From: Breoghania corrubedonensis
GTDB lineage: Bacteria; Pseudomonadota; Alphaproteobacteria; Rhizobiales; Stappiaceae
DNA length: 64,000 nucleotides
Direction of reading: 5' to 3'
NCBI RefSeq assembly: GCF_003053845.1
Contig: NZ_QAYG01000007.1
Span: 124,001 to 188,000 of the forward strand
Part shown: piece by piece, positions 48,992 to 59,726 of the stretch
Position numbering within the stretch: position 1 is the first letter of the stretch
Layout of the letters: every line of letters starts with the position of its first letter
The notes under the pieces: generated by a model
The model's database searches: none
Seen by the model: the letters and a program-made list of their open reading frames with translations, nothing else
Told to the model about the DNA's origin: nothing
Translations under genes and position numbers: made by a program

Positions 48992-49021
48992 TTGTAAACT
49001 GCGGGGCTGTGCGTTTTATAT
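48992..49021 (+). promoter_or_regulatory. Promoter of TRAP binding-protein gene 1
   Basis: TTGTAA at 48992-48997 and TTATAT at 49016-49021 are 18 bp apart. The layout CTTGTA...TGCGnTTTATATC recurs at the same spacing before binding-protein gene 3 and, weaker, before gene 2. A CCATATAATA segment lies further upstream at 48938-48947. Confidence 0.6.
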
Positions 49022-49142
49022 CCTGTAGACGGATTCCGCCTTGGCGGGGCCAGGCGCCGCACCCCGGTCGGGACCCGGGGCGGGGCGCCGTCGTGAGCGC
49101 GGCAACGCGTGTCGCGCACGTTTTACTCGGGAGGAATACATT

Positions 49143-50243
49143 ATGGATCGTCGTTCGTTCTTGAAGAACGCCAGCATCGGTGCGACCGCCGCCGCGGCCA
49201 CCACCCTGGCTGCGCCCGCGGTCAGGGCACAGACCACCACCGACATGGTCATCGTCTCCACCTGGCCGCGGGATTTCCCCGGTCTCGGCACCTCCGCCCA
49301 GCGCCTTGCCGCGCGCATCGGCGAACTGACGGAAGGTCGCATCAACGTGCAGTACTACGCCGCCGGCGAGCGCGTGGGGGCCTTCGACAGCTTCGATGAA
49401 GTGGCGTCCGGCAACGCGCAGGCCTATATCGGCGCCGATTATTACTGGAAGGGCAAGCATCCGGCCTGGGCCTATTTCACTTCGGTTCCCTTTGGTCTCA
49501 CCTATGCCGAGATGGATGCGTGGATCAAGTTCGGCGGCGGCCAGGAGCTGTGGGACGAACTGGCCGACAGCTACGGCCTGCAGAATTTCGCCGCCGGCAA
49601 TACCGGCGTGCAGATGGGCGGCTGGTTCAACAAGAAGGTCGAGACGGCCGACGACCTGAAGGGCCTGAAATTCCGCATGCCGGGCCTCGGCGGCGACGTG
49701 CTGGCCAAGCTCGGCGTCTCGCCGGTTTCGCTGCCCGGCGGCCAGATCTACGAAAACCTCGTCTCCGGCGCCATCGACGGCACCGAATGGGTCGGCCCCT
49801 GGAACGACTACTACCTGAAACTCTACGAGGCGGCGAAATACTACTACTATCCCGGCATGCACGAGCCGGGTTCGCAGCTTGCGCTGGGCACCAACAAGTC
49901 GTGGTACACCAGCCTGCCGAAGATCGACCAGCAGATCATCAAGGCCGCCTGCATGGAAGAGAACGCCGTACAGATGGCCGAGACGAACCACAATAACGGC
50001 ATCTATCTCGACAAGCTGATCAAGGAACACGGCGTGAAGCTGGAGCGGTTCTCCGACGAGATCTACGACGCGTTCGGCGAGGCCTCCGAGGAGGTGTTCG
50101 CCGAGACGGTGGAACACTCCGATCTCACCAGGCGCACGCACGAGAGCTTCGTCAAGGCGCGCTCCGAGCTGGGCCGGTGGATGCTTCTGGCCGATACCGG
50201 CTACACCGAGCAGCGCAACCGCGTGCTGGGCATCAGCGTGTAG
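49143..50243 (+). CDS. TRAP transporter solute-binding protein 1 of 3 (FcbT1/TakP-like)
   Basis: A 366-residue binding protein with a Tat-type leader (MDRRSFLKNA) and cleavage after VRA. It belongs to the COG4663-like class: FAAGERVGAFDSFDEVASG-type segment, FGLTYAEMDAWIKFGGGQELWDEL, the arginine in LKFRMPGLGG, WVGPWNDYYLKLYEAAKYYYYPG. Relatives bind 2-oxo acids, mannitol-like polyols or chloroaromatic acids. GGGAGGAAT precedes the ATG. It is very close in sequence to protein 3, has its own promoter and is followed by a strong terminator, so it is a separate transcription unit. Confidence 0.9.
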   Translation: MDRRSFLKNASIGATAAAATTLAAPAVRAQTTTDMVIVSTWPRDFPGLGTSAQRLAARIGELTEGRINVQYYAAGERVGAFDSFDEVASGNAQAYIGADYYWKGKHPAWAYFTSVPFGLTYAEMDAWIKFGGGQELWDELADSYGLQNFAAGNTGVQMGGWFNKKVETADDLKGLKFRMPGLGGDVLAKLGVSPVSLPGGQIYENLVSGAIDGTEWVGPWNDYYLKLYEAAKYYYYPGMHEPGSQLALGTNKSWYTSLPKIDQQIIKAACMEENAVQMAETNHNNGIYLDKLIKEHGVKLERFSDEIYDAFGEASEEVFAETVEHSDLTRRTHESFVKARSELGRWMLLADTGYTEQRNRVLGISV

Positions 50244-50310
50244 TGCCGTGACCCTACGGCGCTTGCTGTCGGGCGGGACCGCCTGAACGGCGGGAACGGC
50301 GACGAAACGA

Positions 50311-50342
50311 GGGCGATGCGGGAGACCGTATCGCCCTTTTTC
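50311..50342 (+). terminator. Intrinsic terminator after TRAP binding-protein gene 1
   Basis: AGGGCGAT (50311-50318) pairs with ATCGCCCT (50331-50338), followed by TTTTT. It is 67 bp after the stop and should separate gene 1 from gene 2. Confidence 0.85.
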
Positions 50343-57323: not shown

Positions 57324-57423
57324 GACAGGAATAGGATCCAGCAAGCTGTCTGGAGCGATTTCTCGCGGTACGGGCTCGCCCCGTCAGCCACGAGACGGCG
57401 CGTTCGTTTCGAGAAATACCCAC

Positions 57424-57465
57424 GGCGTGCCCCCTTTTCTCCAATGGCGGAAAAGGGGGCACGCC
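57424..57465. other. Perfect 16-bp stem hairpin before DctQ 2
   Basis: GGCGTGCCCCCTTTTC (57424-57439) and GAAAAGGGGGCACGCC (57450-57465) are exact complements with a 10-nt loop. It lies 111 bp before the DctQ 2 start and probably separates or attenuates expression of the second permease pair. Confidence 0.7.
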
Positions 57466-57576
57466 GAACCTGGCGCGGACAGCCCTTACCCGCCTCACCG
57501 TTTCCGCGATGCCTTCCGGTTTCCATTTCGCCCCGGCGGTGCTATGCGAACGCGACGTTCATCCGGGGTTTTCCTT

Positions 57577-58131
57577 ATGCTCGCCGTTGCCTCCGCCATC
57601 GATCGCTTCAACTGCGCCATCGGGCGCGCCATCTCGTGGGCGATGCCGGCGATGGTGGTGATCCAGGTCGCGGTCGTCCTTATGCGCTACGTCTTTGGCA
57701 TCGGCTCCATCTGGATGCAGGAATCGATTGTATACCTGCATGCCGCGACCTTTCTGCTGGCCGGCGCCTATACGCTTGCGGTCGATGCCCATGTGCGTGT
57801 CGACATCTTCTATCGCGAGGCGCGTCCCCGGGTTCGTGCGGCTGTCGACACGTTCGGCACGCTGTTTTTCCTGCTGCCGATGTGCGCGGTCATCCTTTGG
57901 GTCTCGACGCCTTACGTCGCGCGATCCTGGTCGATCCTGGAAGGCTCGCGCGAGACCTCCGGCATTCAGGGCATCTACCTGTTGAAGACGCTGATCCTCG
58001 TCTTTGCCGGGCTGATGGCGCTGCAGGGTGTCGGCATCATCATCAAGGGCGTGAGCGCGCTTGCCGGCCAGCCGGCCGCGCTTCGCCGCTTCACTCGTGA
58101 AGCGGGTGCGGATGGGGAGAGAACCGCATGA
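57577..58131 (+). CDS. TRAP transporter small permease (DctQ 2)
   Basis: A 184-residue small permease of normal length with four spans. The core motif MRYVFGIGSIWMQESIVYLH and AGAYTLAVDAHVRVDIFYREA is intact. The start could be the ATG at 57577 or one at 57544, neither with a good ribosome-binding site. Its stop overlaps the following DctM gene (ATGA). It lies in the same class as DctQ 1 but lacks the extra N-terminal spans. Confidence 0.87.
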   Translation: MLAVASAIDRFNCAIGRAISWAMPAMVVIQVAVVLMRYVFGIGSIWMQESIVYLHAATFLLAGAYTLAVDAHVRVDIFYREARPRVRAAVDTFGTLFFLLPMCAVILWVSTPYVARSWSILEGSRETSGIQGIYLLKTLILVFAGLMALQGVGIIIKGVSALAGQPAALRRFTREAGADGERTA

Positions 58132-59726
58132 TGTTCTCGTTCTTCAATCCCGCCGACCTGCTCCATTCGCTCGACATCACCATGTTCGCCGTTGCCTGCG
58201 TCCTTTTGATGATGGGCTATCCGGTCGCCTTCACGCTGGCCGGCGTCGCGCTTGTCTTCGCGCTGCTCGGCCATTTCGCCGGCGCCTCGCTGTCGCTGGC
58301 GGCCCTTCCCTCGCGCATCTTCGGGCAGATGACCAACGAGGTGCTGGTCGCGGTGCCGCTGTTCATCTTCATGGGCGTGGTGCTGGAGAGATCGCGGGTC
58401 GCCGAGGACCTGCTGGAATCGATGGGCCGGCTGTTCGGGCGGATGAACGGCGGGCTGGCGCTCGCCGTCACGCTGGTCGGCGCTCTGCTGGCGGCTTCGA
58501 CCGGCATCGTCGGGGCGACGGTGGTCACCATGGGGCTGATGTCGCTGCCGACCATGCTGAGGAACGGCTATTCGCCCGCGCTCGCGTGCGGTGGCATCGC
58601 GGCGGCCGGCACGCTCGGCCAGATCATCCCGCCCTCCATCGTGCTCGTCATCCTCGGCGACCAGCTTTCCACCGCCTACCAGAAGGCGCAGATGGAGATG
58701 GGCAATTTCGCGCCCGACACCGTTTCCGTCGGCGATCTTTTCGCCGGCGCGCTGCTGCCGGGGCTGATGCTGGTCGGCCTCTATATCGGCTGGCAGATGG
58801 TGGTGGCGCTCATTCGCCCCAGGGCCGCGCCGGCGATGATGGAAGCGGGCGAGGCGATGCCGAAGGGCGAGATCCTCTCCGCATTGATGCCGCCGGTCAT
58901 CCTCATCGTCGCCGTGCTGGGCTCGATCCTCGCCGGCATCGCCACGCCGACGGAAGCCGCCGGTGTCGGGGCGGCGGGTGCGCTGCTGCTGGCCGGCAAC
59001 CGGCTCACCACGGGGGCGAGCCGCGCGGTGCAGATCGCCTTCGTCTCGCTCATCGGCCTGCTGGTTCTGACCGCGTTCATGGATCTCAGGCCCATGCGCG
59101 ACGAGATCCCGGCCTACGACATGGTCGGCATCGTGCTGGCCATCTGTCTGTCGGCGGCCTTCGCCGCGAGTTTCGCGCTGGTGTTGGTCCGGCTGGTGCG
59201 CGCCGGCATATTGGGCGATGTCTCGCGCCAGAGCGCGCGGATCACGTCGATGGTCTTCGCCATCGTCATCGGCGCGAGTTTCTTCTCGCTGGTCTTCCGC
59301 GATCTCGGCGGCGAGGAACTCGTCAAGTCGGTGTTGTCCGATCTGCCCGGCGGCACGCTCGGCGCCGTCATCGCGGTGATGGCGGTGATGTTCGTGCTCG
59401 GTTTCTTCCTGGATTTCCTGGAGATCGTCTTCGTCGTCGTGCCGTTGGTGGCGCCTGTTCTGCTGAAGATGGAGATGCCCGGCGGCGAGCCGATGAGCCC
59501 GGTGTGGCTCGCGGTGATGATGGCGGTCAACCTGCAGACCTCGTTCCTCACCCCGCCCTTCGGCTTCGCGCTGTTCTACCTGCGCGGCGTGGCGCCCGAC
59601 AGCGTGCGCACCTCCGCCATCTACAAGGGCATCATTCCTTATGTGCTGCTGCAGGTCGCGGCGCTCGCGCTGATCTGGTTCGCACCTGAGGTCGCGACGT
59701 GGCTGCCGACGGTCATTTACGGGTAG
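58128..59726 (+). CDS. TRAP transporter large permease (DctM 2)
   Basis: A 532-residue FcbT3-type channel that closely parallels the first 550 residues of DctM 1: GVVLERSRVAEDLLESMGRL, GATVVTMGLMSLPTML, AAGTLGQIIPPSIVLVILGD, VNLQTSFLTPPFGFALFYLRG. It ends at the VATWLPTVIYG segment, as is normal, with no extension. It starts inside the DctQ 2 stop. The pair may share the three upstream binding proteins or serve one of them; no binding-protein gene follows it. Confidence 0.92.
   Translation: MMFSFFNPADLLHSLDITMFAVACVLLMMGYPVAFTLAGVALVFALLGHFAGASLSLAALPSRIFGQMTNEVLVAVPLFIFMGVVLERSRVAEDLLESMGRLFGRMNGGLALAVTLVGALLAASTGIVGATVVTMGLMSLPTMLRNGYSPALACGGIAAAGTLGQIIPPSIVLVILGDQLSTAYQKAQMEMGNFAPDTVSVGDLFAGALLPGLMLVGLYIGWQMVVALIRPRAAPAMMEAGEAMPKGEILSALMPPVILIVAVLGSILAGIATPTEAAGVGAAGALLLAGNRLTTGASRAVQIAFVSLIGLLVLTAFMDLRPMRDEIPAYDMVGIVLAICLSAAFAASFALVLVRLVRAGILGDVSRQSARITSMVFAIVIGASFFSLVFRDLGGEELVKSVLSDLPGGTLGAVIAVMAVMFVLGFFLDFLEIVFVVVPLVAPVLLKMEMPGGEPMSPVWLAVMMAVNLQTSFLTPPFGFALFYLRGVAPDSVRTSAIYKGIIPYVLLQVAALALIWFAPEVATWLPTVIYG

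What the first reader, a model, noticed from the sequence alone, without database searches (positions are those of the whole stretch)
48992..59726. TRAP locus with three tandem binding proteins and two permease pairs
A TRAP system normally has one binding protein, one small and one large permease. Here three paralogous binding proteins of identical length (366 aa), all with Tat-type leaders, are followed by two complete DctQ-DctM pairs on the same strand with no other genes between. This suggests a modular uptake system in which several ligand-specific receptors feed one or two channels. The tandem gene layout is seen directly; sharing of channels is inference.
Basis: partly seen in the sequence, partly recalled or inferred. 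Interest (0 to 1): 0.75.

Follow-up and report, generated by a model that had tools for sequence, protein, structure and literature searches.

The report
Tripled receptors on a keto-acid importer
A bacterium has tripled the capture-protein gene of an uptake system that probably imports keto acids, each copy with a slightly different binding pocket, beside a pump that carries a large extra domain, probably on the outer face of the inner membrane, of a kind little known in this class of transporter.

Summary
In detail: three 366-aa DctP-type binding proteins (SBPs) and two DctQ-DctM pairs lie on one strand. The SBPs are TakP-like (alpha-keto-acid family). Close relatives have the same locus with ONE SBP: SBP-Q1-M1-[Q2-M2]-[indolepyruvate oxidoreductase]. 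The permease pairs are old paralogues; the triplication is lineage-specific, and of 87 family genomes searched only this one has tandem close copies. All three SBPs keep the Na+/carboxylate clamp, but each has a pocket-lining change absent from 23 single-copy family relatives. SBP2 evolved fast at amino-acid level (67 vs 13 changes, p=6e-10; third codon positions 53 vs 49) and changed residues 48 and 214, pocket positions that covary in a related set. Each SBP gene has its own promoter-like motif and 3' hairpin. A comparable but different extension of a TAXI permease was said in print not to be reported for DctP-type systems. Most likely several receptors with shifted ligands feed mainly the domain-bearing permease. 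Channel sharing and docking remain inference.

The parts
49143..50243 (+). SBP1, TakP-like DctP, 366 aa, Tat-type leader; pocket change A213G
50612..51712 (+). SBP2, TakP-like DctP, 366 aa, fast-evolving copy; pocket changes L48P and T214A
52271..53371 (+). SBP3, TakP-like DctP, 366 aa; pocket change S244L
48991..49020 (+). promoter-like motif upstream of SBP1
   Evidence: motif read by eye from these three genes, also found before the G001 and G053 SBP genes
50478..50507 (+). promoter-like motif upstream of SBP2
52122..52151 (+). promoter-like motif upstream of SBP3
50309..50338 (+). intrinsic-terminator-like hairpin after SBP1 (13 pairs, T run)
   Evidence: z -6.9
51765..51792 (+). G+C-rich hairpin after SBP2
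   Evidence: z -3.8
53388..53412 (+). G+C-rich hairpin after SBP3
   Evidence: z -4.2
53605..54594 (+). DctQ1, 329 aa, DctQ match at residues 180-310 after an N-terminal part with extra hydrophobic segments
54627..56291 (+). DctM1 core (residues 1-555)
56292..57290 (+). DctM1 C-terminal domain, 332 aa and stop, all-helical model, two invariant cysteines (17 and 321 of the domain), predicted periplasmic
57544..58131 (+). DctQ2 (open frame from 57427; most relatives match from about 57577 on, so the ATG at 57544 is the likelier start)
58128..59726 (+). DctM2, 532 aa, no C-terminal domain
60426..63941 (+). indolepyruvate ferredoxin oxidoreductase family protein, 1171 aa, same strand, recurrent neighbour

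Best explanation
This is a TakP-type (alpha-keto-acid) DctP-TRAP importer. Its older layout, one binding protein plus a domain-bearing permease (Q1M1) plus a plain permease (Q2M2), is kept in relatives; in the Breoghania lineage the SBP gene was tandemly tripled. Shown from sequence: the copies are intact, under purifying selection (pairwise dN/dS 0.19-0.33), keep every Na+/carboxylate-clamp residue and the C-terminal tail of the dimer-helix region, differ from single-copy family relatives in pocket lining, and have promoter-like sites and 3' hairpins of their own. Inferred: each receptor binds a 2-oxo acid with a different side chain; they hand cargo mainly to Q1M1, whose C-terminal domain lies in the periplasm and helps dock the (probably dimeric) SBPs; the cargo is used by the adjacent 2-oxo-acid oxidoreductase. 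Sub-claim confidences: TakP-type 0.9; lineage-specific triplication 0.9; C-terminal domain periplasmic 0.85; changed ligand preference in at least SBP2 0.65; sharing of Q1M1 0.55; domain docks SBPs 0.45.
For: Family: best solved relatives are 5cm6, 2hzk/2hzl (TakP), 4pet and 7ug8 (ketoacid-binding protein); TakP clamp residues R177, Y100, Q156, E214, W215, E240 (PMC1839085 passages) map to R178, Y101, Q157, E215, W216, E241, present in the three copies. Triplication: 1 of 87 family genomes has tandem close copies; the tree puts the copies with the single SBPs of the two genus relatives (96/86). SBP2: 67 vs 13 amino-acid changes against SBP1 (p=6.4e-10), third positions 53 vs 49. Pocket: L48P in 0 of 42, T214A in 0 of 43, S244L in 0 of 43, A213G in 3 of 43 relatives, and none of the four in the 23 family relatives; T214A recurs in one copy of an independent tandem pair, L182. 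Positions 48/154/214 covary in 64 Rhodobacteraceae-type SBPs: V,T,T 45; L,S,L 17; other 2. Domain: fused to DctM in 30 distinct relatives and in the 25 loci (24 of them new; L160 is the contig of L082); exactly two cysteines in 26 of 26 and 25 of 25, 50 distinct in all; model pLDDT 92.1, all helix; DctM1 position 552 aligns to the last residues of SiaM chains (659 of 664 in 8y4w, 651 of 655 in 8thi, 612 of 616 in 7qe5; weakly 420 of 427 in 7qha), and the SiaM C-terminus is outside (PMC9971032 passages). Shared use: 13 relatives have one SBP with both pairs. Substrate: the oxidoreductase gene is in 10 of 23 family loci and 4 of 12 Q2M2-only loci.
Against: No ligand, docking or expression data exist here. 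SBP2's changes are only weakly concentrated near the pocket (15 of 46 vs 41 of 232 positions, p=0.027, one of several tests; SBP1 p=0.50, SBP3 p=1), so part of its acceleration could be relaxed constraint. With outgroup L048 SBP2 also has more third-position changes than SBP1 (68 vs 43, p=0.022). A213G is not rare outside the family (62 of 64 Rhodobacteraceae-type SBPs have Gly; also L173) and position 244 varies among relatives, so SBP1 and SBP3 may be unchanged in ligand. As a class the pocket positions are not more variable among the copies (4 of 15) than the whole protein (116 of 366). The promoter motif was read from the three genes themselves and recurs before only 2 of 56 relatives' SBP genes. 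Docking could not be modelled, and the full-length DctM1 model is poor (pLDDT 63.7), so sidedness rests on homology and cysteines. Solitary TakP-like SBPs exist elsewhere in the genome and could also use these permeases.
Confidence: 0.55

Rival explanations
1. Dosage or simple redundancy: tandem copies raise the amount of receptor for one ligand, and the differences are drift.
For: SBP1 and SBP3 are 87% identical with equal rates (21 vs 21 changes); all three keep the same clamp residues; pocket positions are no more variable than the rest (4 of 15 vs 116 of 366); the SBP1 and SBP3 pocket changes occur in, or at positions variable among, other SBPs.
Against: SBP2 has 67 amino-acid changes against 13 at equal third-position counts; two of its changes hit pocket positions that covary in a related set, and one recurs in an independent duplicate.
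Confidence: 0.25
2. Dedicated pairs: one copy (for example SBP2) was recruited to serve Q2M2, which has no SBP of its own in the relatives with both pairs, while the others serve Q1M1.
For: Q2M2-only loci have their own SBP of about 46-60% identity, while loci with both pairs have one Q1M1-type SBP; SBP2 is the diverging copy.
Against: At 31 positions separating the two SBP classes SBP2 is Q1M1-like at 24, Q2M2-like at 2 and neither at 5; SBP1 is 27/2/2 and SBP3 30/0/1. Those positions may reflect ancestry rather than docking, so the test is soft.
Confidence: 0.12
3. SBP2 (or another copy) is no longer a transport receptor but a sensor or scavenger.
For: TakP-like SBPs with P48 and no match to the window's DctQ or DctM beside them recur in this family (14 of 20 fetched loci); SBP2 has gained P48.
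Against: SBP2 keeps the clamp and dimer tail and lies between two transport-type SBP genes.
Confidence: 0.06
4. The DctM1 C-terminal domain is cytoplasmic and regulatory.
For: It is rich in charged residues (50 K/R, 53 D/E) and all-helical, as many cytoplasmic regulatory domains are (general knowledge).
Against: It begins a few residues beyond the point where the outside-facing SiaM C-terminus aligns, with no further hydrophobic peak after residue 543; exactly two cysteines near its two ends in 50 distinct sequences fit a periplasmic disulphide.
Confidence: 0.12

Closest known systems
TakP/TakQM of Rhodobacter sphaeroides (2HZK/2HZL), alpha-keto-acid TRAP
   Same: SBP family, Na+/carboxylate clamp residues, C-terminal helix region, dctQ and dctM homologues downstream of the SBP gene
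   Different: The passages I read describe one SBP with one dctQ-dctM pair; here three SBPs and two pairs, and DctM1 has a C-terminal domain that gave no tblastn match in the Rhodobacteraceae-type loci L091-L156
VcGluPQM (TAXI-TRAP) with periplasmic 'claw' domain
   Same: A periplasmic domain on the C-terminal side of the permease, there predicted to contact the SBP
   Different: The claw is beta-rich DUF3394 in a periplasmic loop of a three-helix extension of a TAXI system (PMC11574862 passages); here the domain is all-helical, directly at the C-terminus, in a DctP-type system
IctPQM/DctPQM of Pseudomonas aeruginosa
   Same: Authors propose that a non-cognate, similar SBP feeds a DctP-type permease (PMC12599236 passages)
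   Different: There two separate systems; here tandem SBPs beside one locus, none tested
ABC importers with several SBPs for one membrane part; TTT 'orphan' SBP expansions in Bordetella
   Same: More receptors than channels (PMC12599236 and PMC5812351 passages)
   Different: Different transporter superfamilies

Membership tests
DctP-type TRAP transporter | DctP binding protein, DctQ small and DctM large permease encoded together | tested here: met
   Pfam matches over cut-off for three DctP, two DctQ and two DctM proteins
TakP subfamily (alpha-keto-acid SBPs) | Clamp residues Arg177, Tyr100, Gln156, Glu214, Trp215, Glu240 | tested here: met
   Equivalent residues 178, 101, 157, 215, 216, 241 are present in all three SBPs
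TakP subfamily (alpha-keto-acid SBPs) | Long C-terminal swapped helix (dimer) | tested here: inconclusive
   The region aligns to TakP through TakP residue 352, and the 20 conserved positions of residues 343-366 carry no derived change in any copy; dimer formation itself not tested
TakP subfamily (alpha-keto-acid SBPs) | Binds 2-oxo acids | not testable with these tools
   Only genomic context (adjacent indolepyruvate oxidoreductase family gene)
TAXI-TRAP with claw domain | Beta-rich DUF3394 domain within a C-terminal extension of three membrane helices | tested here: not met
   The C-terminal domain has no Pfam match better than E 0.12 and none to DUF3394, is all-helical in a 92.1 pLDDT model, and no hydrophobic peak follows residue 543
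TRAP system with one permease shared by several SBPs | More than one SBP delivers to the same QM | not testable with these tools
   Gene order only

The most novel reading that the evidence does not exclude
DctM1 belongs to an undescribed class of DctP-type TRAP permease with a disulphide-bonded, all-helical periplasmic C-terminal domain that docks dimeric TakP-like receptors. That docking platform lets several tandem receptors with switched ligand pockets share one channel, so new substrates can be added by duplicating only the receptor gene.
Probability: 0.35. Interest if true: 0.8.

Novelty: new variant of a known kind. Interest (0 to 1): 0.6.

Why it matters
TRAP receptors are said to pair usually uniquely with their permease, and a 2025 study had to propose non-cognate pairing to explain mutant growth (PMC12599236 passage). 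A locus with three recent receptor paralogues, defined pocket differences and two unlike permeases in one genome makes that question directly testable. [quoted passage not shown] Here a different C-terminal domain, predicted periplasmic, is conserved on a DctP-type permease in 21 of 289 genomes sampled from the class, the window's own included.

Tried and rejected
Rejected: that the two permease pairs are a recent duplication (M1 and M2 form separate fully supported clades in a tree of 47 rows, 16 of them M2, one M2 row, L052, with a very long branch; 49% identical in this genome). Not supported: that one SBP has become Q2M2-like. Rejected: a + strand 360-aa gene at 47894-48976; no Pfam match, and it lies antisense to the Peptidase_C26 gene and the start of IlvD; my label 'up360' is that noise. 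Unproven: an operator half-site CGGCAATT (6 in the window; 9 of 100 shuffles reach that). My IUPAC version of the promoter motif found 0 sites, being one base shorter than the sites; the script version found 3 in the window, all before the SBP genes. Promoter and terminator scan totals were not above shuffles (1 vs mean 2.0; 7 vs mean 8.5). Fold searches of the C-terminal domain gave no Foldseek match at E<=0.001 and only helical-bundle level scores in the second look (best Z 11.0 over 117 residues); no relative is named, and no absence of one is claimed. A link between the solitary SBPs and the presence of Q2M2 was looked at by eye and not pursued. Literature: 10 searches, seen as listings with the starts of abstracts; no listed title or abstract start names a C-terminal domain on a DctP-type DctM or a tandem SBP triplication. 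Passages were seen of PMC1839085, PMC9971032, PMC5812351, PMC11574862 and PMC12599236; a look in PMC10942642 found none of its terms. Most subscription papers are not in that library.
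Full report
Observation. Three + strand genes encode 366-aa DctP proteins with Tat-type leaders, followed by DctQ1-DctM1 and DctQ2-DctM2. SBP1 and SBP3 are 87% identical; SBP2 is 75% identical to SBP1. The gaps from SBP1 to DctQ1 are 368, 558 and 233 bp. The next large gene on the same strand is a 1171-aa indolepyruvate ferredoxin oxidoreductase family protein. Upstream and divergent are a Peptidase_C26 gene and an IlvD/Edd dehydratase.

Where it is. The window is contig 7, 124001-188000, of a 5.33-Mb genome in 21 contigs. Its genus relative G002 has a 228,701-base contig with the hit at the same place as the contig titled Breoghania sp. 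MO_035.B22, so I take the genus to be Breoghania (inference from that match).

Gene order in relatives. I fetched stretches of 7 to 20 kb around the SBP in 33 other genomes and 80 named loci (some are the same genomes), and mapped the window's proteins on them. In the family, 23 loci of this type have one SBP each, followed by Q1-M1; 13 of the 23 also have Q2-M2 behind it and 10 do not, within the stretch. Another group (12 loci, including Pseudovibrio, Afifella and Tepidamorphus) has an SBP of its own with only Q2-M2. The oxidoreductase is in 10 of the 23 and in 4 of the 12; the stretches end about 10 kb past the SBP, so these are lower bounds. Of 87 family genomes searched, the window's genome included, it alone has tandem close copies. 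G080, G098 and G100 have a second copy of 64% elsewhere, and G069 has a tandem pair of a more distant subfamily (47% and 44%). The match list of that call was cut at its weak end, below about 44% identity. Outside the family, G060 has two copies about 7 kb apart (L062) and G194 has a tandem pair behind the same kind of permease (L182); L093 and L095 also hold two SBPs.

History. A maximum-likelihood tree of 59 SBPs (five loci that repeat genomes already present were dropped) puts SBP1-3 with the single SBPs of G001 and G002 (96/86). SBP2 has a branch of 0.33 against 0.063 and 0.084 for SBP1 and SBP3. Within that clade SBP1 pairs with G002's gene (100/83), so the duplications may predate that split, with copies lost in G002; this is not settled. 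Pairwise dS is 0.41 (1-3), 0.55 (2-3) and 0.62 (1-2), against 0.66-1.03 to the four relatives' genes compared. With G001 as outgroup SBP2 has 67 amino-acid changes against 13 in SBP1 (p=6.4e-10) and the same counts against SBP3, while third positions are 53 vs 49 and 47 vs 47; SBP1 vs SBP3 is 21 vs 21. Outgroups L049 and L048 agree on amino acids (63 vs 17 and 62 vs 15 against SBP1); with L048 third positions are 68 vs 43, p=0.022, so some excess there cannot be excluded. DctM1 and DctM2 are separate, fully supported clades, so the pairs are old paralogues.

Pocket. I read passages of the TakP paper (PMC1839085), which name six residues that hold Na+-pyruvate and nine that line the cavity, 15 in all. 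By the alignment they map to our numbering plus one. In 43 relatives the consensus is WLAYYTQRATEWESL; 35 of 43 match it outside position 244, and 21 of the 23 family relatives do. SBP1 has A213G (3 of 43, all in Q2M2-only loci), SBP2 has L48P (0 of 42) and T214A (0 of 43), SBP3 has S244L (0 of 43, though 244 varies). In 23 further SBPs, one of them (L160) from a contig already counted as L082, T214A appears once, in the second-ranked copy of L182, and A213G once, in L173. In 64 Rhodobacteraceae-type SBPs Gly213 is the rule (62 of 64), and positions 48, 154 and 214 covary (45 V-T-T, 17 L-S-L, 1 L-T-T, 1 F-T-A); relatedness is not corrected for. Paralogous SBPs use the states found in the copies: the two distant SBPs of this genome have both P48 and A214; of 21 SBPs at 20 fetched family loci 14 have P48, 9 have A214, 2 have both and 4 have L244. 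SBP2's changes are mildly enriched within two residues of the pocket (15 of 46 vs 41 of 232, p=0.027; SBP1 and SBP3 not) and absent from the 20 conserved positions of residues 343-366. Taken as a class the pocket positions are not more variable among the copies (4 of 15) than the whole (116 of 366). I read this as a change of side-chain preference, likeliest in SBP2, with the keto-acid clamp kept; it is not proof.

Regulation. A 30-base promoter-like motif stands 152, 134 and 149 bases before the three start codons. It matches nowhere else in the window on either strand, and stands before the SBP genes of G001 and G053 but no other of the 56 relatives' SBP genes examined. It was read off these three genes, so the window count is not independent. 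Each SBP gene is followed by a stable hairpin (z -6.9, -3.8, -4.2); only the first was found by the terminator scan, with a T run. Separate transcription is therefore plausible, not shown.

The unlike permeases. DctM1 has a 332-aa C-terminal domain absent from DctM2 and without a Pfam family. It is fused in frame in 30 distinct relatives (876-888 aa, except 824 in L042, where the frame is irregular) and in the 25 loci (open frames 838-960 aa), 24 of them new. In this genome it occurs once. It was found in 21 of 289 genomes sampled from the class and 7 of 299 from the phylum, the 7 all of the same class; both counts include the window's genome. The model of the domain is confident and all-helical (pLDDT 92.1). 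The DctM1 profile ends its match at position 552 against the last residues of SiaQM chains (659 of 664, 651 of 655, 612 of 616) and, with a weak score, of 7qha chain B (420 of 427). PMC9971032 (passages) gives the M subunit an N-out, C-out topology, so the domain should be periplasmic. Each of 26 and 25 domain sequences, 50 distinct in all, has exactly two cysteines, near its two ends, as a periplasmic disulphide would need; L042 and L043, with irregular or broken frames, were not counted. A TakP-like SBP of 54-71% identity is adjacent in 22 of the 25 loci; two of the other three are cut by contig ends and one (L170) shows none. [quoted passage not shown]

Mechanism. Best reading: several 2-oxo-acid receptors, at least SBP2 with altered preference, deliver to Q1M1, whose periplasmic domain may help dock the probably dimeric SBPs, with Q2M2 as a possible second taker; the cargo goes to the oxidoreductase next door. 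Shown: gene content, history, pocket changes, fusion, cysteine pattern. Inferred: ligands, docking, sharing, topology (strong inference), metabolic role.

Verdict. The triplication is a lineage-specific event in a known kind of system. Its value is as a natural test of receptor sharing in TRAP systems, and in drawing attention to a domain-bearing DctP-type permease.

Noticed in passing
window 59769-59919 (+): About 150-bp imperfect palindrome between DctM2 and the oxidoreductase; a search of the genome with 59760-59930 lists 60 matches, both strands of one copy often counted: a MITE/BIME-like repeat.
   Followed up: partly
window 57291-57363 (+): Shorter repeat (up to about 73 bp) between DctM1 and DctQ2; 20 matches in the genome, some of them both strands of one copy.
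   Followed up: partly
window 59951-60130 (-): Possible 59-aa small membrane protein gene on the minus strand between DctM2 and the oxidoreductase; not searched for relatives.
   Followed up: no
window 44910-45153 (+): Cobalamin riboswitch (Rfam RF00174, 89.5 bits).
   Followed up: no
window 35103-38696 (+): A second, distant TRAP locus: an SBP-like frame (26% match) and a DctM-like frame (26% to DctM1).
   Followed up: no
G000:C9:31473-32510 (L005, L076): A solitary TakP-like SBP without a DctQ/DctM match nearby; its relatives are likewise solitary, by match to the window's DctQ and DctM, in 14 of 20 fetched family loci. A conserved receptor of unknown partner.
   Followed up: partly
L182 (G194), 4019-6355 in permease orientation: An independent tandem SBP pair downstream of a domain-bearing DctM1 whose domain lacks part of the middle but keeps both cysteines; one SBP copy has T214A, Y100F and L246T.
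   Followed up: partly
L042 (G001), 14049-14561 in SBP orientation: Partial repeat of the oxidoreductase start and the DctM2 end between the full genes, as from a local duplication; its DctM1 frame is irregular (824 aa).
   Followed up: no
L043/L077 (G002): DctQ1 and the DctM1 C-terminal domain are matched in overlapping pieces, as if the frames were broken, and the SBP has W216L; decay or assembly error.
   Followed up: no
L091-L156: Most Rhodobacteraceae-type TakP loci give split DctM matches with several hundred bases between them, suggesting an insertion in the middle of DctM rather than a C-terminal domain.
   Followed up: no
window 42534-43727 (+): Adenylate/guanylate cyclase catalytic domain protein (Pfam 1.3e-8).
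   Followed up: no
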